DNA of 38,383 bases, taken from a virus. Location of the stretch: IMG/VR virus record IMGVR_UViG_3300030294_000094, positions 1-38,383 of that record. One strand, written 5' to 3'. Positions 7,018-30,316 of the stretch are shown here, one piece after another; position 1 is the first letter of the stretch; every line of letters begins with the position of its first letter. A program made the translations under genes and the position numbers. Under the pieces are notes generated by a model, which was given only the letters and a program-made list of their open reading frames with translations, made no database searches and was not told the DNA's origin.

Positions 7018-7090
7018 GCCTTAGTAGCTCAGTTGGTAGAGCTATTGCCTTGTAAGCAATAGGTCATCGGTTCGATCCCGGTCTAAGGCT
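7018..7090 (+). tRNA. tRNA-Thr (anticodon TGT)
   Basis: A canonical 73-nt cloverleaf. The acceptor GCCTTAG (7018-7024) pairs with CTAAGGC (7083-7089), with discriminator T. The D-stem is GCTC/GAGC. The anticodon stem ATTGC/GCAAT encloses loop CTTGTAA, giving TGT for ACA threonine codons. The T-loop is the standard TTCGATC type. No CCA is encoded, so host CCA addition is needed. ACA is expected to be frequent in this AT-rich phage. Confidence 0.95.
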
Positions 7091-7121
7091 CAAAGTTGAA
7101 ATTCCATTTAAAAACAAATAT

Positions 7122-12159: not shown

Positions 12160-14139
12160 TTATGCTGCCATTTGTGGCTGAGTAGCCTGATTTATCATTG
12201 CAGATGCGCTCGGGTCTTGTCCATCTGCAATTTGTTGTTGAATTTCAGGAGGAACTTCTGTTGTTACCTGTCCAGTCTGTTGTAACTCTTTTTCCTGTGC
12301 ATCCAATATTTCAAGAAGTTTGTCTCCGAATGGGAATTCCCCAACCTTAAGCACTTCTTTTATTCCAATAGCCTGTGCTTTGAAAAAGTCTAAAAGTAAC
12401 CCATTATTTACAGTTCTGAATGCCGGTGTACTTGCACTCTCACTAATAGCCAAATCAAATTGAACGTCTCTGATTTTTTCAGGATTCCACCATTTGCTTT
12501 CTTCATTGTAAGAAGTCCCGGTAACATTCATATAACGTTCCGTTGTCCAATACTGCTGTATTGTCTGCATTAGAATAATATCCCTGTCTTCTCTGAAACT
12601 TTTAAACGTTTCCATCAAGTCCAAAAGGTTCACGCTTGATTGTTGGCTCTGTTGAGCGTATAGGGCAGCCGGAGCGTTAGCATTAGCTTCTTTCCCTTGT
12701 AATGCTCCATATACACCCGAAACGTCCTTCATGGAACTCATATAAAGGTTTAGTAGTTCATAAGCTCCTACATTGGTTGCGTTTTGACTGACGGTATATG
12801 GAAGTTGCTCTTTTGTAAGTCCTTTTGTTTTAATTACGACAACTCCACCGGGCGTTTGATACTGTTCTATTATTTCTTCTTTATTCATTTCCCCCAGACA
12901 CTCCTGTGGAATAATAAATGTTCCTTTTGGTGATGCGCTAATGATAAAGTCAATAAGAGTAGATAAACGATTAATACCTCTGTTCAGCTCTATAAGATCA
13001 TCTACGAATGAATGGTTTTCACCATCAAACATATCTATCTTTATAATGTAAGGCGGTTTTTTATGGTTGAAAGGAGTTTCGGCTTCATATAAAATTTCCC
13101 CTAGTGGAGTCATATATCTGACGTACCAAAACTTATCTAAAAACCATTCGTATTCAATTAGCGCAACATCTTCTGGAAGTACACCTTGTGCTACAGCTTC
13201 TTTAATACGAGTTTTGTTTATCTCGTCAATTGCGGGTGCATCTTCTAATTCAGAAATGTAAGGTTTGCCAGTTAAGTAATCATGAACTTTTAATCGTTCT
13301 TTACTTTCAAATTCCCACGCACATATAACTCTACATTTGGAGCGATCAGTAGGAAGGAAGAAAGAAAGGTTTTCAATTTTTCTTTTAGATAGTGGCTGAT
13401 ATGCTGAATATATGTCGTTTTGATTATTTGAATTATTGTACATTTTTGATACTCGCAATGCCTTTTCTCTATCTCCAGAACAAAGATTAGAAATGATGTC
13501 AGATAAACTCCAATCAAGAATTTCTCCCATTACGGTAAAATCTCCACCTCGTGGGTCTTCTATATCTCCATTGAAGAAAAATCGTGGTAAGGTTACAAAA
13601 TCAACCTTTTCAGACATTATTTGACGGCTGAAATCCCATGAGTACCCAACCTTTTGAATAGCTACACCAGAATGAAGGTATTCTTGTAATGTACGTGCGT
13701 CTAGTTCCCAAAGTTTATTTGATTGATACGAACACTGAACTGCAATAGACATCATTTCGCCTAGTTTTGCTTCGTCTCGATCCCTAGCAACACATCCTGG
13801 TTCGGTCTGGTTACTTCTGAATTGGCCAATAACAGTTTTTACCTGTCCACGGATAAGGTTATTTGCAATTGGAACCTTGCCTTGATTCATGATATGTTGA
13901 CCTTCCGTTACTCTATGTCCAGTTTCATCAATTATGACATCAGAATATTGATCCCCAAAACCATAGGCAACGGCTCTTTGTCTTTTCTTTCGTGCCGGCG
14001 CAAGATCGTTCCATAATCTTGAATACCGGAAGATGCGAGCAACATTATCTGATTGTTCTAATGTATCAAACTTTAAAGGCTCTACCTTTCTTTTCTCTGT
14101 AAGGGTATTCAGATTAAATTTTCTATAGTCTGTTTTCAT
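12160..14139 (-). CDS. Portal protein (P22-like)
   Basis: A 659-residue protein, within the usual range for podoviral P22-type portals. The N-terminal region has RLWNDLAPARKKRQRAVAYG and QGKVPIANNLIRGQVKTVIG, the typical opening in which the packaging tunnel scaffold is described. The central VRYMTPLGEILYEAETPF and NRGINRLSTLIDFIIS segments match the wing/stem region. The C-terminus is Gln/Ala-rich (QQQIADGQDPSASAM), like the portal barrel tail. It forms the 12-subunit head vertex that docks terminase and adaptor. Its start overlaps the giant gene's stop by 4 nt (ATGA). It lies on the opposite strand from terL and away from the capsid gene. Confidence 0.9.
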   Translation of the reverse strand: MKTDYRKFNLNTLTEKRKVEPLKFDTLEQSDNVARIFRYSRLWNDLAPARKKRQRAVAYGFGDQYSDVIIDETGHRVTEGQHIMNQGKVPIANNLIRGQVKTVIGQFRSNQTEPGCVARDRDEAKLGEMMSIAVQCSYQSNKLWELDARTLQEYLHSGVAIQKVGYSWDFSRQIMSEKVDFVTLPRFFFNGDIEDPRGGDFTVMGEILDWSLSDIISNLCSGDREKALRVSKMYNNSNNQNDIYSAYQPLSKRKIENLSFFLPTDRSKCRVICAWEFESKERLKVHDYLTGKPYISELEDAPAIDEINKTRIKEAVAQGVLPEDVALIEYEWFLDKFWYVRYMTPLGEILYEAETPFNHKKPPYIIKIDMFDGENHSFVDDLIELNRGINRLSTLIDFIISASPKGTFIIPQECLGEMNKEEIIEQYQTPGGVVVIKTKGLTKEQLPYTVSQNATNVGAYELLNLYMSSMKDVSGVYGALQGKEANANAPAALYAQQSQQSSVNLLDLMETFKSFREDRDIILMQTIQQYWTTERYMNVTGTSYNEESKWWNPEKIRDVQFDLAISESASTPAFRTVNNGLLLDFFKAQAIGIKEVLKVGEFPFGDKLLEILDAQEKELQQTGQVTTEVPPEIQQQIADGQDPSASAMINQATQPQMAA

Positions 14140-17100
14140 AGGTCTCTTATTAATTCAATTATCTGTTTTTCGTTTTCTTCTTTGTTAGCAGGGTTCTTCT
14201 CTGTATCTTTCTTTAAAAAGTCAATTGTAGAATTCAGGGATTTAAGTTTGCCATAGCTTACAAATATCTTTGAGCTTAATTCTTCTAATTGTGCATTCTC
14301 TTTCACTTCTCCTAAAACTCGTTTAGCTTTGTATTCTTGTACTTTCTTTAATAGACCGTTATATTTAGCTTCAAGTTCAGAATAAGTAGTAGATGTAATA
14401 GTCTTTCCATCTGCTAAGTCTACAATATTTTGTTTTAATCCAGAAATGATTTTTTCGCTTTCTACTTGTTGACTTTGTTTTTGTTCAGGGAGTGCCTTTT
14501 CAAGTTCTTTGATTGTTTTTTGCAATCCACCAACTTCATAGTTTTCATCTGTTTGAAGAGATGCTATTTGATCTTGATAATACTTCTTCTTTTGATCGTA
14601 GTCAGGTTGATTCTTATCTAGCTCCTTGATCGCTTTTTCATTTCTACCAATTAGTTTATCAACCTTTTCTGATTTGTCTTTTGCCTCATAATACTTTTCA
14701 TTCAGCCCGGTGTTACGTGATTGAATGTCTGCAGTATTTTTTATTAATGCTCTAGGGGTAATTTCTTTGATAAATGAACCTTCTTTTTCGCTTAATGCTC
14801 CTTCTACTAAAGAAAGAGGTTGTTCGTAAATCCCGGCAAGATAACCACCCAATAAATGATCTACTATGTCAGGGTTTGGACTTAACCAACCTGCTTTTGC
14901 TCCATCTCCACCTGTAACATTATCTAAAGCCTTTGCAAATCTTACAAGTATTTCAGGTGCGTATGGTTCCCCTTTCTTATTTGTTTTGATCTTAGTGAAC
15001 CCCGGTGCATCTTCGTCTTGATTTTCTTTGTAAATTGAATATCCTAACCATGATTTATTTGCAAGTAATTCTGCTGACGTAGAAACGATATCCGGCATTG
15101 CACTAGCCCAACTCCCCTGCATTGATGATTCTATAGGATTGTAAGGTAATTGAGAGGTCAATCCTTTGAGCATATTTACTGCTGTTTCGGTTACTGAGAC
15201 TTTCCCATGATACATCATCATCATATCCATTCCTAATCCGTGATACATTCTGAACTCTTGTCCTAAAGGAATATCAATTAATTTATCCGGTGTCCAGATA
15301 GTAAAGTTTGCGTTCCGGGCAAAAGAAGATCGTTTCGCAAAATCTTCTAACCATTTATCTTGATCCCAACCAAATAATGAAGCTAATGCAGAATTCAACA
15401 TACTTACTAATAAAGCCCCACTTATTACGTTAGCTGCAATAGCAAGCAAAGCACGTCTTTTTGTTTGGTTATTTTTTGTTGATTTTGAATAAATGTTATC
15501 AATTGCCTGAAAACCTACATTAATAAAGGCGTAAGTACTTTTCAATTCTCTTAGTCCGTTTCTTCCGTTTCCTTTTCTATCAAAGTTTACGGTTGCTTCT
15601 TTTGCCATTGAAGTAGCTTTAAGGGAAGAGTAACCTTTATCAATTGCCGAGATATAAACTGCTAATCTCATTTGATTTTCAGTAACATCACTTATAGCAT
15701 GGTAAATATCAAATATTTTTTTGACCGGGTGAATTCCGTCTTTTAGTTGCTTTTCTATTTCCGTTTGGATTTGTTTGATTTCCATTATTTTGGAAATACC
15801 TGTTTTACCACCCAAAACCATGAAGTCATTAAGCATTTTATCATATCTATTACTAAGATCATGTTTCCCTAGCATTCTTCTTAATAAAGAAGCTTGTGCA
15901 TGTCTGAAATTAGCTATAACACTTGCTGTAAAAGCTGCCCCTTCGTCAATGAATGCAAGGTTTAAACCCGCATGTATGTCTCGAAGTGGATTAGTAACAA
16001 GAATAAAAGCAGGTCTCCAAAGAGTTTTAAATCCTGCCATATGTCTGGTGATACTTCCTATCCCATCTAAGGTAGCTCCAAACGCACCGTCATAATGTCT
16101 CATATTAGTTCCGTTTATAGCTTGTGGAACTCGTGGAGAGGTATGGAAGCGTATTGTGTACGATTCTCCATTACTTTTTAAAACTACTTCGTGTTCTCTC
16201 TCATTTGTAGGCTTGATCCATAATCCTAAATGTAGTCTTTCCCCTCCACTTTGGTATGCTTCTCCTTTTTCTTGAAGAGCTTTCATTTTAGCTTGAAACA
16301 GAACTAAATTGGCGTTGTATGTTTCGTTGGTGTCAGTATCTTCAAAGGGAACTTCATCGGCTATTTTAAAAATAGGTTTACCTTCTTCATCTTCTCCTAC
16401 TTTTACGAACCATGTTTTACTAACTGTCATTGATCCGGTAGTATCTTTCAAGGCTAATCTTCGAACGGATTGTAAGAGTATATTTTCTTCTGCTGCTCCG
16501 ATTGCGCTACGCACGGTTGATTCCATTACTGAGAATGGGTCATCTGATTCCGATGTACGTCCTTTACCTTTTTTTACAGCGCTGAAAAAGAAATCCCCAT
16601 GTTCCATTGAATAGTCCCATGTAGTTTCAGCGGTTGGGTCACGGTGTCCTTTAAATGGAATATAGTAATCAAACATCCCTTTTATAGCTTCGGCTGATTC
16701 TTTCGTGCGCATTCCACCTCTGACCTCTTCATTTAGGGCATAGTGAGAAACTTCGGCTGCTTCTTTCCAAAAGTCATTTACTAATGATCCGTTTGCTTTT
16801 TCAAAATCAGAAATAAATGCGTATGCGGTTTCATCTATACGTTTTTCAATAGCCTTTCTTCCTGAATAGTCAATATCATTTTTTTCCATGAAGTCATAAA
16901 CATTAGATTTAAAATTGGAAATTTTTTGATCTAATATAGAGTTCTTGGTAATAAAGTCAGTTGATCCGGTTACATCATCAATCTTAGCTCTTTCAGCTTC
17001 TAACTTTGCAGAATAATTTCTAACAAGAATATGCGCTGTGTATTCTGGACCATGTTTTAGTTTTGCGTAGGTAGTTATATCATCGTAAGTGAACCCATTC

Positions 17101-20100
17101 TTTTGTATTGCTTTTAAAGTATCTATGAAAGGCTTCATTACCTCAGATTTAAACAAGTCAAAACGATGTTCAATTCTACTTGGAACAGTAGTGAGTCTCA
17201 TTACATAATTATCATTATCAGAAATAACCACTCCTTTACTTTCAAGGAATTCTTGAAATTTCTTTACCGGTAATGCTGAATTAGCCCAACCTTCCCAAAG
17301 CTTAGAAGATATAGTATTCACAGAACGGTTTAGTTCATCTAATGAAATGCCGGATAACTCTTCTCCATTTTCTTCGGCAACATTTTGTAACTGACTTTTT
17401 TGCCATTCCTGTGTTGCTTCGTAATGCTCTCTATTTTTTTTCAACTTATCAAGTACAGAGTCAGTATCAAGTATTTTGACAGGTTCAGGTTTAGAAACTC
17501 TCTTATAACTTGGGGTTTCATCTCCTTCGTCAAGGTCTTGTTGTATTGCTTGACTAATATCTAATACTTCAACATCTTCACTAGCTTCTTTTGCTTCAAT
17601 TTCAGCTAGTTCATCAGTCATTTTTATTTCTAATTCAGCGTATTTCTTTTCTGATTTTTCAAGTTCAGCTTGTTTTGGAAATTCTTTTCCGATTTGGGGT
17701 GTATAAAGTTCGTTTTCACGAATAGCTTTTTCTACACCAACCTTACGAAGACTTATATTTCTATCAAAACGGCTTAAGGAAAGAACTTCTTCCAGATCAG
17801 CAAGCATATTTTGAACTCTTGCGCCTACATCCTCTTTATTGATAATAGGTAGTTCAGGGAATTCATAAGATACCATTCTTTCAATACGAGTCTTAGATAG
17901 GTCTTTTGTTTTATCCAAAGAACTTTTAGACATCCACCCTTTTTCAATTTCAATATTTACATTGAAAGATTTTCCGTTTACCTGCATTGATGTTTTCAAT
18001 TTAGTAATGTCAGAATTAGGGTTGTTTCTTAATGCTTCTGCTGCTTTCTCGACTTGTTTGGATATTGTCTTATTTATCAGTTTATCAATTTCATCCGGTG
18101 TAGTGGCTGTAGCGTTCCCTATTGTTACAGATACGATTTTACCATCAGGGAATAGTTGTTTTATTTTAGCTTTTGAATCTTCTAACTCATTGATAGTGTT
18201 AGTAGTAGCTTTAATTACGTTTTTATTTCTTTTGATTTCAGAAGCCATGTAAATTTGGTTTCCCTCATGATATTGTTTAGCATTTAGAAGTTTCTTTAGT
18301 TTTGTTTCTTCCAAACGCATTGCCATTGCCGACTCGCTGCCAGATAATGAAGCCATCATTTGAGCAAAATTATTTGAGTCGCTACCTTCAATATCTTCTT
18401 CCTCTAATGGTTCACGACTTGTAATATCACCTTCCATTATCTGCTTGATGAATTTACCTTTAATGTTCAATCGTTGATACCCGGTAACATCAAGTGTCCC
18501 CTTAACTCCGATACGAAGTAATTTAATAGTTTTACCCCAATCAAGGTGCAAATTACCTTGTCTCATAATACGTCCGTTCCGTTGTTGATAGTCACTTGGT
18601 CGTGTTGGTGCATCCATGTGTACAAGAAGATGTAAACGTTCCTGTATATTTACTCCAACTCCTAGCTTCTCAGTTGTTCCCAGAACTACACGTACAATTC
18701 CCTTATTTACTTTTTCCCAAAGTGCTGCCTTTTTATCATCTGTACTATAATCGTTTACTATTGCAACTTGGTTTTCAGGAACTCCCGCTTTAATAAGTTT
18801 CTCCTTAATATCTTCAAATACATTGAACCTCTTTTCACCGTCTTTCTTGTCGGTGCTTTGATAAGCATCACAGAATATAGCTACAGTTCCATTGTATTCT
18901 TTAGTATTATCTAAATCTTTCAGAACTTCCTTTACTGTAATATTTGTTTTACTATTTGGATCATCAGGGAACTTAGGATCAACCAACCTTACATCTACTG
19001 CAGCACGTTTAGCAACTCCAAACATAACAAGGGGAATGTGTTTGTTATCCCTTTTTTCTGCACCTGACATACTCTCAAATCTAGTAAGAGTAGCTTTGAT
19101 AGATTTCATTACCGATTTAAGAGGTTGTGTTTGATCTATCATCATGTCGATAGGTGCGCCAGACTCAATACGTGGTGTTCCTACGCCTTCTTTTAGGTTA
19201 GACACTTGTTCGGTAAGGACAGTGTGTGTAACCTGTTTCCATGCAGACAGTAATTCAGGAACATTGACAAAACTTGAAAAACGTTTTGTTATCTTGAATT
19301 TTCCACTGGCTGAGAACTCTGCTGCTTCTTCGATGTTTCCAAAGTTATTCACAAATGCATCGAAGTTATTCATATTCAAACGTTGCAACTCTGTTTTAGG
19401 AAGTAGGTAACGTAAGAATGTCCACATTTCAGCCATTGTATTTGAAATGGGAGTTCCGGTAGCAAACACCACGTTTTTTCCGTTGTGTTGTTCGAGGATA
19501 TAAGAGGTTTTGAGCTTTAAAGATTGAGCTTTTTGAGAAGCACCAACATCAATACCCTTTATACTTTGAAGCGAGGTGACGAAACCTAACTTTTTATAGC
19601 TATGAGCTTCATCAATTAATAGTGCATCAATACCCAATTGTTCAAAGGTTCTTGTGTTGTCAGTCCTACGATCCATCAGTTTTTCTGCCTTAGAAGTAGC
19701 CTTCTTTCTATTGGATTCAATTTGCTTAATGCTTAGTCCTTTCTTTTTACTAGGGATATCTGATTCCTCTTTGTCGTACTTAGAATCTTCCAGAGTTTTG
19801 ATTTGTTTCTCTGCCGTACTGATAAGCCTTTTTGAACTTTCTTCTCCGTTAGCCTTCAACTCTTCAATTAAATCTAGCTTTTCTTGAATTTTCTCGTCAA
19901 TGTATTGCAATACTCGTCCTCTATCATCAGGAATGCCATCGAGGTAACTATGATACAAAACCACAATATCCAAATCATTATAGGCTATTTTAGCAAATAA
20001 TTGTTGTCTTTGGGCTGCTGACAGATCATTAGAGGAAGGTACAAGTACCTTAGCTCTTGGATAAAGGTCTTTTATCTCTTTTATGAACTGTTTGTAAGTT

Positions 20101-23100
20101 GCACGTTGAACTACGATACAAGGCTTCTTAGCTAGCCCTAGTCTACGCATTTCCATTGCAGTAGAAATAAGGGTAATTGTTTTACCGGTTCCTACTTCAT
20201 GGGCTAATAGAGTAGCAGTTTCCAATGATCTCAAAGTCCCCTCTTTTTGATGGTTCATTGGTATTTTTGCACCGTCATTGGCTTCTCTTGAAAATGCTTT
20301 CGCTTCTCCTTCTTCTTTGAATGTATAAATCGAACCTGTTTTGTCTGCCTGACCATTATATTTATCAAGTTGGCCATTCAATTTGCCAATTTCTTTTGGG
20401 GACAAATCAGCTATATTGCGAACTCTATAACCGTCATCTACTTTTTCGGGATTAGAGAACTTTCCTCTAGCTCCAACAAAAATATCAAACCCGGTTGCAT
20501 TAGTTTTCTTTTCAACTACTGAGCGGAAGATGTTGTTGTAAATGTTTTCCATTTCTTCAACATCCGTATTATTTCCACTTCTAACCCATGACAAAAAGTT
20601 CTCTTCCAGATCGGATTGTTTGTTTTGGGCCATAGAAGTACCGACAACATCTTTTACTTTATGTCTGTCTCTTCCATAACCTACCAATTCAGTAACTACA
20701 GTTGGAGTATTATTCATTGCGTTTAAGGCAATTTTACTACCTGATATTACCCCTACAATACCTGCCTGTTGATCTTTGGCATTATCTTTCCCCTTCATTT
20801 CACCGAAATACTTATCGGTAGAAGTTTTCTTTAATCCTGCCTGAACATCAAATGTTTCTGCGAAGAACTTATTGTAAACTTTATCAGGAACCCATGTGCT
20901 ACCTAGTGATACTTCAATATGAAGTATTGGTAAGTCCAAAGGAACTACTTTGCTCAATTCTTCAATGTTCTTATCGTAAATACCACCTATATTATCTTGC
21001 TTTGCAACTTCTAATTTATTGCGGACGTTGCCCGACAAGTAATTATCGGAAGATTCCACAAGTCCGGTAGAAGGATTTACAAATCCAATAAGATTATCTA
21101 GGATTTCTTTTTTGATTGAATCTTCACTACGATCTAGCAATTCAGAAATGTAACCCAGATTTACGATACCATATTTGTATGAACTTAGTCTTACACCATC
21201 GGCTACATTATCGGCTTTCATTTCAATCTGCTTGTCGATGACTCTCTTACTAAACATATCAGATTTTGTTATCTCAAATGTTTTAGTTTTTGAATCAGGG
21301 TTACTCACATCGGTTATGTTTTCAATAGCAGAAGTTCCCGGAAAGTCTACATCATCACGAAGGAATGATATTTTTTGATTATTAGATAAGTGTCCATAGC
21401 TATTTACAAAGCCGTCATAGACCTTATTTAAATTGGTGCGTAGTTCTTCAATGTTGCTTGCATCGTTGCTCTCAGCTTCTAGCAAATCAGATACAGCGGT
21501 CTTTATTCCTGAATAGTCAGTTACTACTTGTGCTTTTGATTTGCCGGCAACCTTATTATCATTCCAACTTACCGGAATGGCTTCACCGTATTGAATAAAG
21601 TGTGGTACCCCGTCGATAACAGTCAAACCACCTTCTTTTGTTCCGTTATTTTCTACGGCTGTACGTTCTTTTGCACTCGTTTTGGCTGCATAAATATCAC
21701 TAGGAAGATTATCTATGAAGTCAGAAATTACATCAGCTTGTTTTAGCCCGACAATCGGTGCGTTACGTTGTTCTGTTTGTCTGATAGCGTTACCACCTTC
21801 AAAGCCGAACTTCATTTCCCCTGCCATATTTTGTGGGAAGTCAGTAAAATACTTGTTGATACGCATTGTAGCTATTTTATCAGCTAATTCATCGACATAG
21901 TTGTAATTTTCATCACGAACCCGATTTCCTGTTTTTTCTTGGTAAGGGGTTTCACGTTGAATTACTACGTCCTGAACATTTTTAGCGTAATCAGACATCC
22001 CGCTTTCATCTCTTTTACGAATGATAATAACATCAGCTGTAGCTTCTGTACCTGCACTTCCTTTGAAAGTATCAGTATTAAGGCGTAGAACATCAATAAA
22101 ATCAGCATTACCTTCATTTATTACCCAATTACGCAACGCTGTACTACGATCCATTGTAGAAGATGTAGTAATGAATACGCCTATACCACCCGGTTTAAGT
22201 TTGCGTACGCTTTTTGAAATAAAATAATTGTGTATATCAAATTTGCTTGAAAGGTCTTTATCGTTTTTGTCGTGTACTTTGAATGATCCAAAGGGAACAT
22301 TTGAAACAACCAGGTCAAGACTATTATTTGCGATCCGTTGTTCCTCAAATCCTGCAATGTTTACATTTGCATCAGGATAAAGAGCCTTTAGGATTAAACC
22401 GGATATGTTATCCAGTTCAACAGCTTTCAATGTGGTTGAATTACGAAGAGCTTCCGGCATAAGTCCAAAGAAGTGACCTATCCCTGCGGATGGTTCTAAT
22501 ACCTCACCACCTTTAAAGCCTAGTTTGGTAATCATATCCCAAACTGCTGAAACTTCTGCGGTAGGAGTATAGAAGGATGTATTTGTAGAGGCTCTGGCTG
22601 AATCGTATTCCTCTGTTGTAAGGGCTGACTTTAAAGTATTGAAGCGTGGGTTACTTTCTTTGAATATATCTGCTAATCCACCCCAACCTGTGTACTTAAC
22701 AAGTACTTCCATTTGTTCGGGCGTAGCAATTTCGCCACTTTCATTTAGCTTTTTGGCTAGTTTGATAGCTGCGATATTGGCGGTAATCTTTGACACGTCA
22801 CCTCTTGGTGCTACATCTATACCTTTTTTAATAATAAAGTTCCGGGAATTCCTTACTTCGCTATGTCCCGAAGTTTGTTCAGGATTGCTTGCATTTCCTT
22901 TTCTCTTATCGGTTTCTGGTTTGATTCCATTGCCGGGCTGAACGGTGCTAACATTTGGTTCATCAGTTCCCTTGCTCCCGATTCGTTCGCTCCCTTGCTG
23001 ATCGCTAGTTTTTCCCAATTCAGGGCTTCCGATATTTTCTCCTCTACCAGTGCTATCAGGTCGTTCGGTTTTTCCTCTGCCCACTTCCGAAGTAGGTTTG

Positions 23101-26100
23101 GTGAGTTCTCGGCTGCCATCCATAGGGATGTTTCTGCCCAATCCGTTTGTATCGCTCTCATTTTTACTAGGTGTTTTATCGTTTTCAGAATCAAATAAAG
23201 ATGTTTGTGTTGGTACGTCTTTACTTTTACCCTTTTTAGATTCGGTCTTACGTGAAATATATTCTTTGTGATCGAACTTATCAATATCGAATTTTGCTAC
23301 TTCATTGGGGGTTGACATCTTCTCAACGCCTTCCATTCCGGGAGCATATCGTGTAAGTTCGTAAAATTGTTTTAGGTATGGCTTTACTTCTTCTCCAATA
23401 CCTTCAATCATTTGTGCAGCATAATCAGAGAACTTTAAATCCCCTTCATCGAATATCATTTCGGAGAGGTCTAAGGCTATCTGATTTAGTTCTGGATCAA
23501 TCGACTCACGTTTGTAATTAGGCTTTAAATACTCACCACCAGTAAGCGTATTAAGCGAAGAATTTCTTTTGAAATCAACCTTATTTTTGTTGATACGGGC
23601 TTTTGCTGCTGCAAATAAGGCTTCTTTCTTTTCCTTTTTTACTTGATCTTCTCTTTTTGATCCAACTTGATTTTGTTCAACAGGGCTAATTTCTGCTGTA
23701 CGTCCATCTTCGACACGTCCATCTTTTGATATTCCGCTAGTACTTCCGGTGCTACTGACAGATTGAAACTCATTCCCGGCTGCGATAGGTTTAATATTGC
23801 CATTAGTTATTTTGTTTAATGATTCTAATACTGGTTTTTGTAATAATTCAGGAACTAAAGACATATCAATGTCTCCATTAAGTAAATCTTGAATAGTTTT
23901 TCCTTTCAACAAATTGTCAGTCTGCCATGCAATAGCTTCTGTTATCTGACTAAATTCGCTTTCATTTGCATAGTCAATAGGAACAAACTCTTCATATCCT
24001 TTGATACTTAGTATTTGTTTCTTAGTATTTGTTTCTTCAATTGCAATGTGTATCTGTTCATGTAACCATGAGTTTACCAGATCGTCCGTTGTTTCTTGCG
24101 CTTGTGAGTCGATAAGAATTGTATCTCCAATTCTAACGGAATGTAATGTTTCTCCATCGTTGGCGTATTGTAACGCTTCTTGGTAGTATTTATCGGAAAC
24201 AAGTTCTTTCAAAGAAGATAGTAACGATTCTTGTCCGTTTACTACAGTTGCTTTATGGGTAATGCCATTATCAACTTCAAGTTTATTGATTAAATCTACT
24301 GCCGATTTATGTTTCTCAATAGAAATTTCAGATACAGGTGAAGGAGTCTCTTTATAATCAGCAAAAGGTTTGGCTTGTTTTGCGCCATCGTAAAGCCATG
24401 TTTTAAAATCTTCAACAGATACTTCGGTCATGTCAGACAAACCGTTCCAATCCTTATCGTAGCTATCCATGTAGGCATTCTCTGCTTCTTTAGCAGTATC
24501 GTAACCTAACATTACTTTAGATTCGTCAAATAAACCTGCCTTATCACCAGTAGTATGTACTTGGTCAATTACAAATACTTTTGTACTGTTCTCGTCTGGC
24601 CCAATAAAACAATCAACATGATCTCCGTCTCTTCCGATTGTACCTTTGAAGTAGCCGTAATGGGATTTCATTACATTTTCCCATGTTTTCCCATTTGAAT
24701 CAACGCCAGACCGGATAGAACCTTTCGGATTTTCTACAGAAATGTCCATACCTTGAATATTGATATGAGCTTTCTTATAGTTCCCGGCTTCTTTTTGTCC
24801 TTCGGTAGGGTTTAGATTAGGTTCTTGATCTGCTATTTGTATATCAATGGATTGTTGAAGATCAGAAACTGGAACATCTTCAATCGTTTCTCCGTTTCCT
24901 TCTAAATCAACTGTTTTACCATCTTTGGTTATTCCGTTTACAGTGTATTCTTTACCTTGATAGGAAACAGTAGAGCCGTTTTTTACTTCTGGGCTAGTTT
25001 GTCCTTCATTTCCTTGAACAATTCCGCTTTCCTCATTGATTGAAGGGCTATCTTCCGTGCCTGAATCCTTTGATCCGGTGTTAGTGTTATCGGTTGTGGT
25101 TTCATAATCATTTGTTATTTGCTCTCCCCAACTTGTAATAAATTGGTTCAAAGTATCTATTTGTTCGTTTGTAAAGGTACTAATTCCTAAGAAACTAGCA
25201 AGTATATCATCATTTATTTGATCTAATATCGTTGTTTCTATTTCTGTCTCAGGAAAATTGATATATGCTTTGAAATCTTCCGGTGTCATTCCGAATGTTT
25301 CCTCACCGATATTACGCCTTCCTTCCGCTTTATTTAAAGCATCAGCATTTGATTTAGTTGAACGTAGAACCTCATTTGTAATATCAAGTATTTCACCGTC
25401 AGACATATTTGATACTCCCGGTATTTCTCCATTGTTTCCATTGCTACCATAGTCATTATAGATAGAATGAGCAAACTCAGTAGGAGTAAGTCCGTTTTTT
25501 TCGTCAATATAGTTTCTTCTTTGAAGTCTTTCCTTGTTGGAGTTTCTAAATTCAGTTGATAGCCCATCTTTCCACTTAAATTTTTGTCCACCGGCAATAG
25601 CCTGATGAATATAATCTTCCATGTCCAAATATCCACCTAAGTCTACAATTCTTTTCTTGAAACCTGTAAGTTCGGCAGTAGTTTGTTTTACTTCTGGATT
25701 GTCCAACTCTTCTTGTACTTGCAGTGCCTGTTCTTTTTTCAGTTGAGCTATTTCAGGACGAAGATTTACTTCTTTTGGTGTTTCAATGGTTTCCGGAACT
25801 TCTACTTTAGGTAAAAGAGATTGAAGGTCATTCAATTTTGTATTTAAAGAATTAAGTTCTTCATTCAATGAAATGCCTTTGGCTTCTTGCTTAGACTCAA
25901 TAGCTGCTTCCTCTTGCATTGTTTTAGCTTTGCTGAGCAGTTTATTAGTTTCTTCTGTAAGTTTGCCTATAGTTCTTGTATTGACTTGAATTTGGCTTTG
26001 TAAACGCTTTACTTGTCTACCGATTAAACTGTTTGCAGCTTCCTCGCCTTTAATTTCTTTAGTATGATCGTATATTTGTTGATCGGTCATATTGTTATAG

Positions 26101-28658
26101 TCAACAGTACCGTCTCTTTTAGTCGGATATGTTGGCTGTTCTGTGCCGGCAGTAGCCGACAAATCGTCGGCAACTGGTTCTTGAACGGAAGCGGGTAGGG
26201 GCTTATTACTAATTTTTGAGTACTCTTCATCAGTAATAGGCATTGGTTCTCCTACTAAGTATTTATTCTGTCCATTAATCTCAATTTCCTGCAAGGTAAG
26301 TCCGCTAGTAGCCGGGTCAACATCTACCTGATAAGTTTTACCATCTCCTAATTCGTACTCTTCAATATCTTTTGGATAGAAGTTTTCTATTTCATTGCTT
26401 ATTACGGTTTGATCTATTTGTGATGAAGCTTCTGTCTGTGCTTGTGCTATAGGAGTTTCAGTAACTAATGAATGAATCATGTTCGGATCAAGCATCTCAA
26501 CCTTTGGCGTTCCGTCTTCATTCAATATAGGGTTTCCGTCTTCGTCTTTTGGAATATGGGTAATAACTCCACTATTCTCAACATCTATAGTGCCGTCTTC
26601 TTTAAAGACTGGATCACCGCCATTTATTTGAACTTCTTTACCATTATGTAACTGAACAGTTTGGATATTACCTGTAGTTTTATTGGAAAGATCAACTAAC
26701 TGTTGATTGGCTTGATCCTTTTCCGTTTGTACCGGGTCAATAGCGGGTTGTTCGCTTGATTTTTGTTGTTGTCCATTGACTTCATCATACTTTGCCATGA
26801 TTGAATTATGAACGTCTCCAACATTAGCAGACTCAAAAGTGGAATTAGGATCATCAAAGGAAGTTCTTTGCAATTTACTTAGTGGGATTTCTTGTCTTTT
26901 GCTTGGTACGAGTCCCTCTGTTCCTTCAATAGGCTTAGTTTCAAAGATAACATTTCCATCTTTTACTTCAATGATTGTTCCAAATGGGGTTTCGCTTCCA
27001 ATAGTAAGATCAGGTGTCACAACTTTACCTACTGTTTTAGTTTCCCCATTGCCATCTACGCCAATTATGTTACCATCTTTGTCGGTTCCTGAAATATAAT
27101 GTTTGTTTCCTTGTGAATCGGTAATAGTTTGAACATTACCGGTAGAGGATTTAAAGTTACTCAATGTTCCTTTTACTCTTTCCGAAAATGCGTTACGTTC
27201 CAAATCTGGATCAACAGTCTTATTCTTTTTGAATTTATCAAGCAAGTCATAGAAATTTTTCGTTTCCATTGTAAACGAATTCTGAATAGCTGCTTGATCT
27301 ACGTCAATAAGTTTGTTGTCTGGGGTAAGTCCTTTCGTTCCTTTTTCAGTCTGGATTAGTTCTACTGGCTTATCTCCATTCATTCCAATAGTAACTTCTT
27401 TCTGTCCTGATCTACGTGCTAAGTTAGCTTCACTCTGTGCATTTACAGAGAATGGAGCAATAGCACTAAACATAAATGCTGTAGTGGTAGCGCTTATGGC
27501 TGTGTTTAAGTAGTCTTGTGCTGTTTGAGATTGCCCGGCAATGGCATTAACTCCCATTTTAGACATCTCCATAGCATTCATTAATCCTACGCTATGAGCT
27601 GTATTTTTTAATATTTGTTTAAACGCTGAGGGTTGAGCCTTAGCATAATTTTCAAATAGTTCTTTTGCTCCACCTTCAAATGCTTTTGGATTAGATTTGA
27701 ATAAGTCTTCTATAGTATTTTGAATGAATGGCAATTTGCCTAATTTAGTTGCTCCAATACCTAATTTACCCAATATACTCATTGTTCCACCCATAATTGT
27801 GGAATAGCCAAATCCTGTTGCTGCTCGAGCTAAATCATTCTCTGGTTCTTTGTTCTCCTTTTTGATCTCACTGTATTGTCTTATACCATCACCATAGGCG
27901 CTTGCTGTGAACGTTCCGGTAATAATAGGAGTCAATGCTCCACCTGAATACATATCTGCTACAGAGGCAACAACAAGAGGAAGAATACCACCAATTTTTT
28001 CAGGGACTCCGTTTTGCTGTTTTGATACATGTGCTGCAAGAGCATCAGACTGAGAAGTGAAAACATCTCCAACATCTTTCATCCATTTGGCATTTCCCCA
28101 TAGTGAACTCATATTATGGTAGTAATCACCTACTAATCCTTCAATTCCACCACCTAATGCATTTACACCAGTTACAGCACCTTGCAAAACTCTTTCATCC
28201 GTAGACTTTTGTTTTGTGATAATAGGTTTTGATGCAGCAATCTTTGGGTTATTTTCTGGGTTAATAGTATCTTGTACCTTAGCAAGTTTCACTGGTTGGT
28301 ATGAATCAACTGGTTGAATAGCATCTTGTGCAATAGGTTTAATTGAAAAGTCTAACGGTTCAGGTTTGAACTTAGCAACCGGGGGTACAGAATCAATATT
28401 TGTTTTCGTTGTGTCAATCTCTGGAATAATGCCATAGTTTTGAACTGGCGCACGTAAAACTCCACTTGGAGTTATACCTAACTTTGAAGAGAAAGAATTG
28501 AAATCACCAACATTGTAACCAGCTTTTGTAATAGCATCGTGTAGAATCAACGCCTTAGCAGGATCAGCCATCTTTGCAGCAAAGGTTTGTTCATCTCCTA
28601 AATTATAACCGTCCTTAGTAAGTTGAGTATATAAAGCTACTGTTTTATCGTTTGCCAT
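14136..28658 (-). CDS. Giant polyvalent protein: pyrophosphatase-like, metallopeptidase, N6-methyltransferase, SNF2 helicase, LPD38
   Basis: 4,840 residues in one uninterrupted frame. Approximate order: two GYN(L/V)GD repeats (9-61); Gly/Ala-rich hydrophobic segments (~220-410); small SH3-like beta modules (~500-600 and ~1230-1280); coiled coil (~890-990); inorganic-pyrophosphatase-like domain (~1291-1421, GRDGDHVDCFIG); zinc-metallopeptidase-like HEQIH (1533-1537) with possible third ligand E1574; Ser/Gly/Lys-rich linker (~1830-1935); N6-adenine methyltransferase (~1940-2200; EPSAGIG at 2055, NVPF at 2120); SF2/SNF2 helicase (~2800-3400; GTGKT with K2826, DEAH 3016-3019, QRNGRIMRQG around 3360); LPD38-like region (~4000-4550, TNPLRDIHAG); terminal coiled coil (~4690-4840). 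Such proteins are thought to enter the cell with phage DNA and act early, including against restriction. It is coupled to portal by ATGA and lies 3 nt after an ejection-type gene. Confidence 0.93.
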   Translation of the reverse strand: MANDKTVALYTQLTKDGYNLGDEQTFAAKMADPAKALILHDAITKAGYNVGDFNSFSSKLGITPSGVLRAPVQNYGIIPEIDTTKTNIDSVPPVAKFKPEPLDFSIKPIAQDAIQPVDSYQPVKLAKVQDTINPENNPKIAASKPIITKQKSTDERVLQGAVTGVNALGGGIEGLVGDYYHNMSSLWGNAKWMKDVGDVFTSQSDALAAHVSKQQNGVPEKIGGILPLVVASVADMYSGGALTPIITGTFTASAYGDGIRQYSEIKKENKEPENDLARAATGFGYSTIMGGTMSILGKLGIGATKLGKLPFIQNTIEDLFKSNPKAFEGGAKELFENYAKAQPSAFKQILKNTAHSVGLMNAMEMSKMGVNAIAGQSQTAQDYLNTAISATTTAFMFSAIAPFSVNAQSEANLARRSGQKEVTIGMNGDKPVELIQTEKGTKGLTPDNKLIDVDQAAIQNSFTMETKNFYDLLDKFKKNKTVDPDLERNAFSERVKGTLSNFKSSTGNVQTITDSQGNKHYISGTDKDGNIIGVDGNGETKTVGKVVTPDLTIGSETPFGTIIEVKDGNVIFETKPIEGTEGLVPSKRQEIPLSKLQRTSFDDPNSTFESANVGDVHNSIMAKYDEVNGQQQKSSEQPAIDPVQTEKDQANQQLVDLSNKTTGNIQTVQLHNGKEVQINGGDPVFKEDGTIDVENSGVITHIPKDEDGNPILNEDGTPKVEMLDPNMIHSLVTETPIAQAQTEASSQIDQTVISNEIENFYPKDIEEYELGDGKTYQVDVDPATSGLTLQEIEINGQNKYLVGEPMPITDEEYSKISNKPLPASVQEPVADDLSATAGTEQPTYPTKRDGTVDYNNMTDQQIYDHTKEIKGEEAANSLIGRQVKRLQSQIQVNTRTIGKLTEETNKLLSKAKTMQEEAAIESKQEAKGISLNEELNSLNTKLNDLQSLLPKVEVPETIETPKEVNLRPEIAQLKKEQALQVQEELDNPEVKQTTAELTGFKKRIVDLGGYLDMEDYIHQAIAGGQKFKWKDGLSTEFRNSNKERLQRRNYIDEKNGLTPTEFAHSIYNDYGSNGNNGEIPGVSNMSDGEILDITNEVLRSTKSNADALNKAEGRRNIGEETFGMTPEDFKAYINFPETEIETTILDQINDDILASFLGISTFTNEQIDTLNQFITSWGEQITNDYETTTDNTNTGSKDSGTEDSPSINEESGIVQGNEGQTSPEVKNGSTVSYQGKEYTVNGITKDGKTVDLEGNGETIEDVPVSDLQQSIDIQIADQEPNLNPTEGQKEAGNYKKAHINIQGMDISVENPKGSIRSGVDSNGKTWENVMKSHYGYFKGTIGRDGDHVDCFIGPDENSTKVFVIDQVHTTGDKAGLFDESKVMLGYDTAKEAENAYMDSYDKDWNGLSDMTEVSVEDFKTWLYDGAKQAKPFADYKETPSPVSEISIEKHKSAVDLINKLEVDNGITHKATVVNGQESLLSSLKELVSDKYYQEALQYANDGETLHSVRIGDTILIDSQAQETTDDLVNSWLHEQIHIAIEETNTKKQILSIKGYEEFVPIDYANESEFSQITEAIAWQTDNLLKGKTIQDLLNGDIDMSLVPELLQKPVLESLNKITNGNIKPIAAGNEFQSVSSTGSTSGISKDGRVEDGRTAEISPVEQNQVGSKREDQVKKEKKEALFAAAKARINKNKVDFKRNSSLNTLTGGEYLKPNYKRESIDPELNQIALDLSEMIFDEGDLKFSDYAAQMIEGIGEEVKPYLKQFYELTRYAPGMEGVEKMSTPNEVAKFDIDKFDHKEYISRKTESKKGKSKDVPTQTSLFDSENDKTPSKNESDTNGLGRNIPMDGSRELTKPTSEVGRGKTERPDSTGRGENIGSPELGKTSDQQGSERIGSKGTDEPNVSTVQPGNGIKPETDKRKGNASNPEQTSGHSEVRNSRNFIIKKGIDVAPRGDVSKITANIAAIKLAKKLNESGEIATPEQMEVLVKYTGWGGLADIFKESNPRFNTLKSALTTEEYDSARASTNTSFYTPTAEVSAVWDMITKLGFKGGEVLEPSAGIGHFFGLMPEALRNSTTLKAVELDNISGLILKALYPDANVNIAGFEEQRIANNSLDLVVSNVPFGSFKVHDKNDKDLSSKFDIHNYFISKSVRKLKPGGIGVFITTSSTMDRSTALRNWVINEGNADFIDVLRLNTDTFKGSAGTEATADVIIIRKRDESGMSDYAKNVQDVVIQRETPYQEKTGNRVRDENYNYVDELADKIATMRINKYFTDFPQNMAGEMKFGFEGGNAIRQTEQRNAPIVGLKQADVISDFIDNLPSDIYAAKTSAKERTAVENNGTKEGGLTVIDGVPHFIQYGEAIPVSWNDNKVAGKSKAQVVTDYSGIKTAVSDLLEAESNDASNIEELRTNLNKVYDGFVNSYGHLSNNQKISFLRDDVDFPGTSAIENITDVSNPDSKTKTFEITKSDMFSKRVIDKQIEMKADNVADGVRLSSYKYGIVNLGYISELLDRSEDSIKKEILDNLIGFVNPSTGLVESSDNYLSGNVRNKLEVAKQDNIGGIYDKNIEELSKVVPLDLPILHIEVSLGSTWVPDKVYNKFFAETFDVQAGLKKTSTDKYFGEMKGKDNAKDQQAGIVGVISGSKIALNAMNNTPTVVTELVGYGRDRHKVKDVVGTSMAQNKQSDLEENFLSWVRSGNNTDVEEMENIYNNIFRSVVEKKTNATGFDIFVGARGKFSNPEKVDDGYRVRNIADLSPKEIGKLNGQLDKYNGQADKTGSIYTFKEEGEAKAFSREANDGAKIPMNHQKEGTLRSLETATLLAHEVGTGKTITLISTAMEMRRLGLAKKPCIVVQRATYKQFIKEIKDLYPRAKVLVPSSNDLSAAQRQQLFAKIAYNDLDIVVLYHSYLDGIPDDRGRVLQYIDEKIQEKLDLIEELKANGEESSKRLISTAEKQIKTLEDSKYDKEESDIPSKKKGLSIKQIESNRKKATSKAEKLMDRRTDNTRTFEQLGIDALLIDEAHSYKKLGFVTSLQSIKGIDVGASQKAQSLKLKTSYILEQHNGKNVVFATGTPISNTMAEMWTFLRYLLPKTELQRLNMNNFDAFVNNFGNIEEAAEFSASGKFKITKRFSSFVNVPELLSAWKQVTHTVLTEQVSNLKEGVGTPRIESGAPIDMMIDQTQPLKSVMKSIKATLTRFESMSGAEKRDNKHIPLVMFGVAKRAAVDVRLVDPKFPDDPNSKTNITVKEVLKDLDNTKEYNGTVAIFCDAYQSTDKKDGEKRFNVFEDIKEKLIKAGVPENQVAIVNDYSTDDKKAALWEKVNKGIVRVVLGTTEKLGVGVNIQERLHLLVHMDAPTRPSDYQQRNGRIMRQGNLHLDWGKTIKLLRIGVKGTLDVTGYQRLNIKGKFIKQIMEGDITSREPLEEEDIEGSDSNNFAQMMASLSGSESAMAMRLEETKLKKLLNAKQYHEGNQIYMASEIKRNKNVIKATTNTINELEDSKAKIKQLFPDGKIVSVTIGNATATTPDEIDKLINKTISKQVEKAAEALRNNPNSDITKLKTSMQVNGKSFNVNIEIEKGWMSKSSLDKTKDLSKTRIERMVSYEFPELPIINKEDVGARVQNMLADLEEVLSLSRFDRNISLRKVGVEKAIRENELYTPQIGKEFPKQAELEKSEKKYAELEIKMTDELAEIEAKEASEDVEVLDISQAIQQDLDEGDETPSYKRVSKPEPVKILDTDSVLDKLKKNREHYEATQEWQKSQLQNVAEENGEELSGISLDELNRSVNTISSKLWEGWANSALPVKKFQEFLESKGVVISDNDNYVMRLTTVPSRIEHRFDLFKSEVMKPFIDTLKAIQKNGFTYDDITTYAKLKHGPEYTAHILVRNYSAKLEAERAKIDDVTGSTDFITKNSILDQKISNFKSNVYDFMEKNDIDYSGRKAIEKRIDETAYAFISDFEKANGSLVNDFWKEAAEVSHYALNEEVRGGMRTKESAEAIKGMFDYYIPFKGHRDPTAETTWDYSMEHGDFFFSAVKKGKGRTSESDDPFSVMESTVRSAIGAAEENILLQSVRRLALKDTTGSMTVSKTWFVKVGEDEEGKPIFKIADEVPFEDTDTNETYNANLVLFQAKMKALQEKGEAYQSGGERLHLGLWIKPTNEREHEVVLKSNGESYTIRFHTSPRVPQAINGTNMRHYDGAFGATLDGIGSITRHMAGFKTLWRPAFILVTNPLRDIHAGLNLAFIDEGAAFTASVIANFRHAQASLLRRMLGKHDLSNRYDKMLNDFMVLGGKTGISKIMEIKQIQTEIEKQLKDGIHPVKKIFDIYHAISDVTENQMRLAVYISAIDKGYSSLKATSMAKEATVNFDRKGNGRNGLRELKSTYAFINVGFQAIDNIYSKSTKNNQTKRRALLAIAANVISGALLVSMLNSALASLFGWDQDKWLEDFAKRSSFARNANFTIWTPDKLIDIPLGQEFRMYHGLGMDMMMMYHGKVSVTETAVNMLKGLTSQLPYNPIESSMQGSWASAMPDIVSTSAELLANKSWLGYSIYKENQDEDAPGFTKIKTNKKGEPYAPEILVRFAKALDNVTGGDGAKAGWLSPNPDIVDHLLGGYLAGIYEQPLSLVEGALSEKEGSFIKEITPRALIKNTADIQSRNTGLNEKYYEAKDKSEKVDKLIGRNEKAIKELDKNQPDYDQKKKYYQDQIASLQTDENYEVGGLQKTIKELEKALPEQKQSQQVESEKIISGLKQNIVDLADGKTITSTTYSELEAKYNGLLKKVQEYKAKRVLGEVKENAQLEELSSKIFVSYGKLKSLNSTIDFLKKDTEKNPANKEENEKQIIELIRDL

Positions 28659-28661
28659 TAT

Positions 28662-29732
28662 TTAGAAGTTAGGTATTGTTTTTTGTTTAGGTAGTCCGGG
28701 AAGATAAGTTGATTTAATTGGTGCAGGTCTTTGTGCTGTTGGTGTAGTAGCTTGTTTAGGTACTAAGTGACCGTCTTGAATGGTTAGGTATTTATCCCAA
28801 TGCAATTTGAATGCATTATCAGGATAAGCCCTGAATGCTGCTTTATCCTGAATGCTTATAGTCGGATCAGCCATTGCCTTTTTAGCTACTTCTGCTGACC
28901 ATGCCGATACTTCTTTCTTTGATATAGTGGTAAGTCTATTATCAGCACCTACAACATCCTGCGTTTTTTCAATAGAAGATGCCGTTGGTTTATTCTCCAT
29001 AACTTTATCATGCCTTACAGTATTTGCAAGTGTTTTATCAGCTCTCGTAGAATTAGTTTTCGAAAGATCATAAGTACGATCAGAATTAGTTTTCGATTGA
29101 TTGAATGTACGATCAGAATTTGATTGAGCTTGCGCTGCTACTGCTGCTTTACGAGCGTTCTCAACGGCTAAGGCTTCTCTTGCACGCTTGTCTTTCTCGT
29201 CAGCAAGCATATATTGCAATCCGTTAGCTTTATAGGATTGTGAGTCTCTTTTGTAAACATCATTTAGCTGTTGTAGATGCGCATTGAGTTGTGGTGCTTG
29301 TGATTCTCTTTTGATAGGTGTACCGCCTTTAGATGTTGTAATTCCTTCGCCAATCAACTTGGCAATATCAGATACTACAGAAAGATTGGCATTCGTTTTT
29401 AGCGCATTTGCTCTTGGTTGATCGTAAACAGGTGGAGCAATACTATCATGGTACATTTGAACAAAGCTTTTCCCTGTATCAGCCGATTTTTTAGCTACAT
29501 CTGCAACAGTTGGCGTAGTAACTGCGGGAGCTGCTGCCGGAGTTGTGGGAACAGTCGGAGTAGCTGCGGGTGCTGTATATACTTTCGAGTTATCATATCC
29601 ATTATTATTAGCCCACTGAATGGCTGCATTATCCTTTTCAGGACCCTGTGACACATAATCAACTGCATCGGGATTGACTGTCTTTCTCCATGCATTGAAA
29701 TTTCCCTGATCTATTGTTTGTTTTTTAGCCAT
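28662..29732 (-). CDS. Putative internal virion / DNA-ejection protein
   Basis: A 356-residue protein with mosaic low complexity: an N-terminal WRKTVNPDAVDYV segment, an Ala/Pro/Thr linker (~54-75), a helical Gln/Ala-rich middle, three tandem ~11-residue units (NSDRTFNQSKT, NSDRTYDLSKT, NSTRADKTLA, ~205-235), and a Pro/Thr-rich C-terminus. There is no enzyme motif or membrane segment. Its place between the small hydrophobic-helix protein and the giant polyvalent protein, in an operon with nozzle and portal, is that of podoviral ejection proteins (T7 gp14-16, P22 gp7/16/20). It starts at the upstream stop (TAATG). Confidence 0.6.
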   Translation of the reverse strand: MAKKQTIDQGNFNAWRKTVNPDAVDYVSQGPEKDNAAIQWANNNGYDNSKVYTAPAATPTVPTTPAAAPAVTTPTVADVAKKSADTGKSFVQMYHDSIAPPVYDQPRANALKTNANLSVVSDIAKLIGEGITTSKGGTPIKRESQAPQLNAHLQQLNDVYKRDSQSYKANGLQYMLADEKDKRAREALAVENARKAAVAAQAQSNSDRTFNQSKTNSDRTYDLSKTNSTRADKTLANTVRHDKVMENKPTASSIEKTQDVVGADNRLTTISKKEVSAWSAEVAKKAMADPTISIQDKAAFRAYPDNAFKLHWDKYLTIQDGHLVPKQATTPTAQRPAPIKSTYLPGLPKQKTIPNF

Positions 29733-30316
29733 TATCCAAAGTTTTGAGTATCATCTACTAATTTGCCTACAGGAGTAGGAGTAGGCACTAATGGCGTAGC
29801 TGTTGGAGTTAGTGGTTTAGCTGTCATACTCAATGCTGCTGAACCTACGCCCGAAGCATTACCCATGAAAGTTCCCCATGCTGACTTCTTAGATTCATCA
29901 ATATTGTTTTGAGCACCAAATAGAGCGGAACGTCTAGCACCATAAGAAGCCAATGCCTGGTCTTTCCTTTGTGCTGTTATGCTAGCCATTTTATTCACTG
30001 CATCGGCATAAACAGAACCATTATTCTTTTCCTGAACGGCTGTAGCTTCCGGGGTTGCTCCTGTAATAGCTGCTGTACGTTGAGACTTTATAGAAGTTTC
30101 CTTTTGATTCTTTTCTAACTGGCGAAGATATGCTGCGTTGTCACTTCTATTTATAGTGTCCTCGTAGTATGACTTATTGAATAAGTTCTCACTATAAGCT
30201 TTTTCGTTATTTAAGTCTGCTTGTTGCTTCTTAGCTATCTTAGCCGTTTGAATACCGCCAACAATATTGCCAACAACCGAAGAACCAAGTCCTAACAATG
30301 GAATTAAGTCTGCCAT
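29732..30316 (-). CDS. Putative internal virion protein with N-terminal membrane-active helix
   Basis: A 194-residue protein. It opens with a Gly/Ala-rich hydrophobic helix (LIPLLGLGSSVVGNIVGG, residues 4-21), followed by a long helical region (QTAKIAKKQQADLNNEKAY, RQLEKNQKETSIKSQR), a second Gly/Ala-rich stretch (TFMGNASGVGSAALSM) and a Pro/Thr tail. This layout of a glycine-zipper-like helix plus coiled coil matches T7 gp14-type ejection proteins that help open the cell envelope. It is coupled to the next gene by TAATG. Homology is inferred from layout and position. Confidence 0.65.
   Translation of the reverse strand: MADLIPLLGLGSSVVGNIVGGIQTAKIAKKQQADLNNEKAYSENLFNKSYYEDTINRSDNAAYLRQLEKNQKETSIKSQRTAAITGATPEATAVQEKNNGSVYADAVNKMASITAQRKDQALASYGARRSALFGAQNNIDESKKSAWGTFMGNASGVGSAALSMTAKPLTPTATPLVPTPTPVGKLVDDTQNFG

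What the first reader, a model, noticed from the sequence alone, without database searches (positions are those of the whole stretch)
14136..28658. A 4,840-residue polyvalent protein takes up about 38% of the window
One uninterrupted gene combines a methyltransferase, a complete SNF2 helicase, a pyrophosphatase-like domain, an HExxH domain, membrane-active-looking segments and an LPD38-like region. Phage polyvalent proteins are known, but this one dwarfs every other gene here and sits between ejection-type proteins and the portal, with ATGA coupling to the latter. That implies virion packaging and delivery of an early-infection multi-enzyme, perhaps processed after entry.
Basis: partly seen in the sequence, partly recalled or inferred. 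Interest (0 to 1): 0.85.

Follow-up and report, generated by a model that had tools for sequence, protein, structure and literature searches.

The report
Giant modular phage cargo protein
This gene encodes a 4,840-residue multi-enzyme protein that a gut-type bacterial virus probably loads into its particle and injects with its DNA; proteins of this size turn out to be common in its relatives, but they share fixed ends, a swappable middle, and a front tag that matches the tail of the protein encoded just before it.

Summary
In detail: one intact 4,840-codon frame (14136-28658, minus strand) with InPase, zincin (HEQIH), adenine-methylase, SNF2 and LPD38 regions, overlapping the portal gene by ATGA. 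It is a new phage-type "polyvalent protein" (Iyer 2017) with a DarB-like methylase-helicase. Its size is not exceptional. Relatives reach 7,237 aa, and the cultured Bacteroides phages BS-TP4 and BKO1-TP3 carry 5,391 and 5,553 aa. In 77 of 121 checkable relatives the portal is the next gene.

(1) The last ~1,100 residues form a constant chassis, an AlphaFold-confident helical fold shared by many phage polyvalent proteins but absent from the PDB. (2) The middle is a swappable payload: two relatives are 97% and 95% identical at their ends yet non-homologous over ~1,700 central residues. (3) The N-terminus carries a short tag whose type, and in one class copy number, matches a motif at the C-terminal tip of the adjacent ~360-aa protein. 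That coupling is confined to tag and tip, and both were exchanged together between 94%-identical proteins.

I infer a cargo docking system (about 50%). Virion packaging and injection (about 80%) rest on context and homology. No proteomics were found, and proteolytic processing is untested.

The parts
14136..28658 (-). giant polyvalent protein gene, 4,840 aa
   Evidence: ORF list and translation; coding statistics; PHROG DarB-like
28476..28652 (-). N-terminal tandem tag of the 'GY' type (residues 3-61)
   Evidence: tag HMM E 6e-21, same tag class at the start of 20 of 51 complete relatives
27369..28208 (-). N-terminal hydrophobic/helical region (residues 151-430)
   Evidence: HMM shared with L170; only marginal hydrophobic peaks
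24843..26828 (-). conserved pre-payload region (residues 611-1272)
   Evidence: about 52% identical to L007 although the following payload is unrelated
24393..24800 (-). InPase domain (residues 1287-1422)
   Evidence: Pfam PF18823 E 2.5e-53; present in 35 of 51 complete relatives
23766..24317 (-). zincin-like region with HEQIH (residues 1448-1631)
   Evidence: motif; HMM found in 8 of 51 relatives
21924..22790 (-). DarB-type adenine methylase (residues 1957-2245), variant motif IV NVPF
   Evidence: Pfam Eco57I; M.TaqI in PDB; HMM
18414..20255 (-). SNF2 ATPase (residues 2802-3415)
   Evidence: Pfam; helicase motifs; PDB ISWI/INO80
14139..17522 (-). constant C-terminal chassis (residues 3713-4840)
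   Evidence: alignments A1-A3; AlphaFold pLDDT 83.8; Foldseek BFVD 68 matches E<=0.001, PDB none
14778..15344 (-). LPD38 domain inside the chassis (residues 4439-4627)
   Evidence: Pfam PF18857 E 5.5e-19
15396..15452 (-). single strong hydrophobic segment (residues 4403-4421)
   Evidence: Kyte-Doolittle mean 2.2 over 19 residues
28662..29732 (-). adjacent ~360-aa protein; long helices and a disordered C-terminal tip
   Evidence: AlphaFold model, pLDDT 65, residues 330-356 below 50; same position in relatives
28665..28769 (-). C-terminal tip of that protein, proposed docking motif (VPKQATTP..LPKQKTIPNF)
   Evidence: internal repeat score 28, reached by 0 of 60 shuffles
29732..30316 (-). T7 gp14-like protein (weak)
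   Evidence: Pfam PF24072 E 2.4e-5, 24.8 bits, below its cut-off of 27
12160..14139 (-). P22-like portal protein, start overlaps the giant's stop (ATGA)
   Evidence: Pfam PF16510 E 1.3e-29

Best explanation
The gene encodes a phage-type polyvalent cargo protein of a portal-terminase phage, probably of Bacteroidales. It is probably loaded into the head near the portal, ejected with or ahead of the DNA, and protects and prepares the incoming genome. The DarB-type methylase and SNF2 motor act against restriction (inferred from P1 DarB). The InPase clears pyrophosphate or nucleotides, and the zincin may cut the chain (both inferred from Iyer 2017). The protein is built as tag + N-terminal body + swappable payload + ~1,100-residue constant C-terminal chassis. 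Shown by sequence: the chassis, the payload exchange and the tag-tail coupling. Inferred: the N-terminal tag docks on the C-terminal tip of the adjacent ~360-aa internal protein, which recruits the giant to the portal-proximal cargo zone, and the chassis is the delivery part.
For: Domain hits. Giant followed at once by the portal on the same strand in 77 of 121 checkable relatives, and portal further downstream on that strand in 18 more. The C-terminal module sits at the C-terminus of giant frames throughout. AlphaFold model of it pLDDT 83.8, matched by the C-terminal parts of many phage 'large polyvalent' proteins. Payload swap: L178 vs L187, 96.9% (aa 1-2536) and 94.5% (last 1,240 aa) identical, ~1,770 vs ~1,630 aa between them non-homologous; DNA flanks 97.5% and 92.8%; further cases BS-TP4 vs BKO1-TP3 and window vs L007. 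Tag-tail coupling: partial Mantel r 0.257 against 2,000 permutations with maximum 0.10; the 25 residues before the tip (0.081) and the residues after the tag (0.027) show nothing beyond permutations. Tip charge -5.1 with MPI tags and +2.1 with GY tags. Double MPI tags have doubled tips, single tags do not (Mann-Whitney p 0.0016). Tag and tip swapped together between 94%-identical L187 and BS-TP4. Literature: DarB is in the P1 virion and its first 30 residues suffice to target a reporter to the capsid (PMC9024508). In phage DEV the giant injected polymerase gp71 is encoded beside ring protein gp72, whose unresolved C-terminus is suggested to be stabilised by it (PMC10925440).
Against: No proteomic evidence for this phage or its relatives was found. 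The ~360-aa protein has no detectable structural match, so calling it gp15/gp72-like is positional only. The methylase motif IV is NVPF, so catalysis is uncertain. Tag and tip are neighbours in DNA, so part of the covariation may be joint transfer. The permutation and Mann-Whitney tests do not remove shared ancestry fully. In many GY pairs the internal repeat of the tip is not significant, and 17 of 79 giants have no tag of either class.
Confidence: 0.72

Rival explanations
1. The giant is not virion cargo but is made in the infected cell as a multi-enzyme that modifies phage or host DNA, and it lies among late genes only by chance of synteny.
For: No proteomic data were found; the enzymatic domains would also work inside the cell.
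Against: The giant-then-portal order is kept in most relatives of very different payload. [quoted passage not shown] DarB is a known P1 virion protein (PMC9024508).
Confidence: 0.12
2. The match between tag and tail reflects only physical linkage: one recombination block carries the end of one gene and the start of the next, with no interaction between the two peptides.
For: Tag and tip are separated by a few to a few tens of bases, and the L187/BS-TP4 exchange spans about 930-980 bp across the junction.
Against: The correlation is confined to tip and tag and vanishes 25 residues before and 80 residues after. It persists among distant genome pairs (0.206). Tips with the same motif sit on unrelated bodies (body similarity 0.03-0.08, e.g. 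L129 with L216/L220/L222, L197 with L167, L194 with L118). Repeat number and charge match.
Confidence: 0.4
3. The central zincin cuts the giant into separate enzymes in the head or after entry.
For: HEQIH with downstream acidic residues. 35 of 51 relatives carry an HExxxH zincin, mostly near the chassis boundary. P1 DdrB is processed (cited in PMC5512222).
Against: The zincin type and position vary and it is absent from some relatives. The N4 virion polymerase also has such a domain yet is packaged uncut (PMC5512222). No cut site is known.
Confidence: 0.4
4. The giant frame is a sequencing or assembly fusion of several normal genes.
For: Unusual length.
Against: Independent contigs and cultured phage genomes carry single frames of 3,600-7,200 aa with the same C-terminal end; uniform coding signal.
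Confidence: 0.01

Closest known systems
Phage-type polyvalent proteins (Iyer et al. 2017, PMC5512222; Pfam LPD38, InPase)
   Same: Multi-domain chain of unrelated enzymes beside late genes, with methylase-SNF2 dyad, InPase, zincin and LPD38.
   Different: Iyer described variable domain sets without a fixed layout. Here a constant ~1,100-aa C-terminal chassis, exchangeable payload block and N-terminal tags matched to a neighbour are seen.
Giant DarB-like proteins of Bacteroides phages BS-TP4 and BKO1-TP3 (PQ571277, PQ571269)
   Same: Same position before the portal, same C-terminal chassis (25-26% identical), InPase, methylase-helicase payload; even longer (5,391 and 5,553 aa).
   Different: Also carry a ddrB-ParB domain and an HExxxH zincin next to the chassis; BS-TP4 has a strawberry-notch helicase instead of SNF2.
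Phage P1 DarB
   Same: Adenine methylase plus SNF2 ATPase, believed injected; N-terminal packaging signal shown experimentally (PMC9024508).
   Different: About 250 kDa against 4,840 residues here; P1 packaging depends on DarA/Hdf (PMC12810830).
N4/DEV virion RNA polymerase (gp71) with ring protein gp72 (PMC10925440)
   Same: Giant injected multi-domain protein encoded next to small ejection proteins; helical N- and C-terminal parts without known fold.
   Different: Payload is an RNA polymerase; no homology to it was found here.

Membership tests
Phage-type polyvalent protein | two or more domains of unrelated activity in one chain | tested here: met
   InPase, methylase, SNF2, LPD38; HEQIH
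Phage-type polyvalent protein | encoded next to virion/packaging genes | tested here: met
   portal next; MCP and terminase in the window; portal next in 77 of 121 relatives
Phage-type polyvalent protein | packaged in the virion and injected | not testable with these tools
   needs proteomics and an injection assay
DarB-like antirestriction | adenine methylase joined to an SNF2 ATPase with the DarB profile | tested here: met
   phrog_10089 E 0, best stretch over the SNF2 region; Pfam methylase and SNF2
DarB-like antirestriction | canonical methylase catalytic motif IV (N/D)PP(Y/F) | tested here: inconclusive
   NVPF at 2120; catalysis cannot be judged from sequence
DarB-like antirestriction | protects phage DNA from restriction | not testable with these tools
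   plating assay needed
T7/N4-type ejectosome | neighbour homologous to gp15/gp72 ring protein | tested here: inconclusive
   no PDB match by profile or by low-confidence model
T7/N4-type ejectosome | neighbour homologous to gp14 pore protein | tested here: inconclusive
   PF24072 E 2.4e-5 but below curated cut-off

The most novel reading that the evidence does not exclude
Giant phage cargo proteins are loaded through an exchangeable docking code. One or two copies of a small N-terminal tag domain on the giant bind the same number of short motifs at the C-terminal tip of the neighbouring internal virion protein, while the enzyme payload in the middle is swapped as a cassette between constant ends. 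This would be analogous to docking domains of polyketide synthases (from general knowledge, not tested), but inside a virion.
Probability: 0.5. Interest if true: 0.85.

Novelty: new variant of a known kind. Interest (0 to 1): 0.62.

Why it matters
The protein itself extends a known class. The comparison suggests how the class is organised: a delivery chassis, a payload slot that accepts different anti-restriction or host-modifying modules, and a loading tag with a matched partner. If tag and tip bind, they would give a testable rule for how gut phages choose what proteins to carry, and perhaps a handle for loading reporter proteins into Bacteroides phage particles in laboratory strains. The ~1,100-residue chassis is also an unsolved fold shared across many phages.

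Tried and rejected
Record size: rejected, relatives reach 7,237 aa. Near DNA relatives in GenBank phages: none. Viral-contig scan with the N-terminal 700 aa: no relative, consistent with fast change of that end. PDB sequence and fold searches of the chassis: nothing. PDB profile and fold searches of the neighbour: nothing, model weak. PDB sequence search of the 194-aa gp14-like protein: nothing. Read-through alignment of neighbour tail plus tag (TAA read as Q, used only as a modelling device) aligned badly and was not folded. NCBIfam gave only weak partial helicase hits. A PADLOC scan was not completed (coordinate error). Search for a non-adjacent neighbour gene carrying a matching tip found none in the loci checked, so linkage could not be excluded that way. 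Shiga-toxin phages matched the chassis but were not fetched. Literature searches found no paper on BS-TP4 and only three papers with the phrase 'large polyvalent protein' and 'phage'.

Full report
What is there. The window is a 38,383-base virus record. The minus-strand frame 14136-28658 encodes 4,840 residues and its stop overlaps the portal start as ATGA. The open frame is not chance (about 10^-163) and codon-position GC is even along it. Pfam finds InPase, Eco57I-type methylase, SNF2 and Helicase_C, and LPD38. PHROGs gives DarB-like antirestriction with E 0 on a profile of 4,647 positions. The PDB sequence search finds M.TaqI and ISWI/INO80 relatives. HEQIH lies at 1533-1537 and a DGDHVD pyrophosphatase motif at 1344-1349. 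The methylase motif IV is NVPF rather than NPPF/Y, so activity is open. Only one strong hydrophobic segment exists (4403-4421), inside the C-terminal region.

Neighbours. Transcription runs from a 983-aa protein through a 91-aa protein, a 194-aa protein with a sub-threshold T7 gp14 match and a 356-aa protein to the giant and then the P22-like portal. An SU10-type major capsid protein and a terminase are also in the window.

Relatives. The C-terminal ~1,120 residues led to IMG/VR contigs (L007 about 71-74%, L008/L009 about 60% and L010 44-49% identical, more at about 30%), to Bacteroidales genomes (closest L088, a Paludibacter sp. metagenome assembly, 60%) and to cultured Bacteroides phages BS-TP4, BKO1-TP3 and BF1-TP2 and Vibrio phages. 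Open frames carrying it are mostly 4,500-7,200 residues; the longest seen is 7,237. The size of the window's protein is therefore ordinary for its lineage. The portal follows directly on the same strand in 77 of 121 loci with enough flank, and further on in 18 more.

Chassis. An alignment of 77 sequences gave an AlphaFold model of residues 3713-4840 with mean pLDDT 83.8 and pTM 0.75, almost all helical. Against predicted viral structures 68 matches have E<=0.001, the best over about 1,000 aligned columns. Those with names are mostly large polyvalent proteins, and some are annotated with RelA/SpoT, lytic transglycosylase or methylase activity. The PDB has no match. So LPD38 is one part of a much larger conserved C-terminal unit without a solved structure.

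Payload exchange. Domain profiles built here show 51 complete proteins ending in the same chassis with different middles: methylase plus SNF2, methylase plus strawberry-notch helicase, kinase, ART, LPD5/LPD1, PBECR5, in various sets. The window and L007 share residues 611-1181 (52%) and 3722-4838 (71%) but nothing recognisable between about 1272 and 3722. The sharpest case is L178 against L187 (Phocaeicola massiliensis): 96.9% over the first 2,536 and 94.5% over the last 1,240 residues, with 1,770 against 1,632 unrelated residues between, and 97.5% and 92.8% identical DNA outside. BS-TP4 and BKO1-TP3 differ in the same way. Conversely the window's methylase-SNF2 block is 36% identical to that of BKO1-TP3 while their chassis are 26% identical, so payload and chassis have different histories. 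A scan of all complete proteins listed 44 such pairs, many of them related to each other.

Tags and tips. Giants begin with a short tag. The 'GY' class is usually a tandem pair of ~28-residue units (LY..L...GY.LG...F...L). The 'MPI' class is one or two units of MPIY..NGK.YNIP....F. The window has a tandem GY tag. The ~360-aa protein encoded just upstream ends in a motif often repeated twice, e.g. KKSPT..KKSPTS, PPSMR..PPSMR, DDPYAKY..DDPYAKY. In 26 of 79 pairs the last 35 residues hold an internal repeat at p<0.05, and in 22 of these 0 of 60 shuffles reached it. Tip charge follows tag class (mean -5.1 for MPI, +2.1 for GY), and in the MPI class double tags have repeated tips while single tags do not (p 0.0016, not corrected for ancestry). 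After removing similarity of the neighbour's body, the chassis and the giant's next 500 residues, tag and tip similarity still correlate (0.257; permutation maximum 0.10 of 2,000). The flanking residues on either side do not. Neighbours with unrelated bodies carry the same tip when the giants share a tag. L187 and BS-TP4 giants are 94% identical from residue 64 on, yet tag and the 3' half of the neighbour gene were replaced together.

Interpretation. P1 DarB shows that an N-terminal peptide of 30 residues can target a protein into a head (PMC9024508). In phage DEV the injected giant gp71 is encoded beside ring protein gp72, whose unresolved C-terminus was suggested to be stabilised by it (PMC10925440). 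By analogy I propose that the tag docks on the neighbour's tip. Shown: the coupling. Inferred: binding, packaging, order of ejection. The main rival for the coupling is joint transfer of neighbouring DNA. The sharp limits of the signal, the matching copy number and the unrelated bodies argue against linkage alone but do not exclude it. The neighbour's identity as a ring protein is positional only.

Verdict. The protein is a new member of phage-type polyvalent proteins. The modular layout and tag-tip coupling, for which I found no earlier description in the papers searched, make it a new variant worth testing.

Noticed in passing
7018-7091 (+): tRNA-Thr (TGT anticodon) just before the terminase region; the closest genome relative (L188, 13796-13869) has the same tRNA-Thr plus tRNA-Ser and tRNA-Arg in the corresponding place.
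   Followed up: partly
L188:237-1547: Tyrosine integrase on the same contig as the closest genome relative (Paludibacter sp. assembly), suggesting that relative is an integrated temperate phage and that the host group is Bacteroidales.
   Followed up: partly
2935-4566 (-): SU10-type major capsid protein carrying a C-terminal Big_2 Ig-like domain, i.e. a decorated capsid protein.
   Followed up: no
30649-33600 (-): 983-aa protein matching only an unknown PHROG family (phrog_32516), upstream in the same operon.
   Followed up: no
L034:1055-1516: The small protein upstream of the giant itself carries an MPI-type tag, the only non-giant in the set that does.
   Followed up: no
L003, L004, L005, L006: HExxxH zincin directly before the chassis in most relatives but not in the window, which has a different zincin after InPase.
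   Followed up: partly
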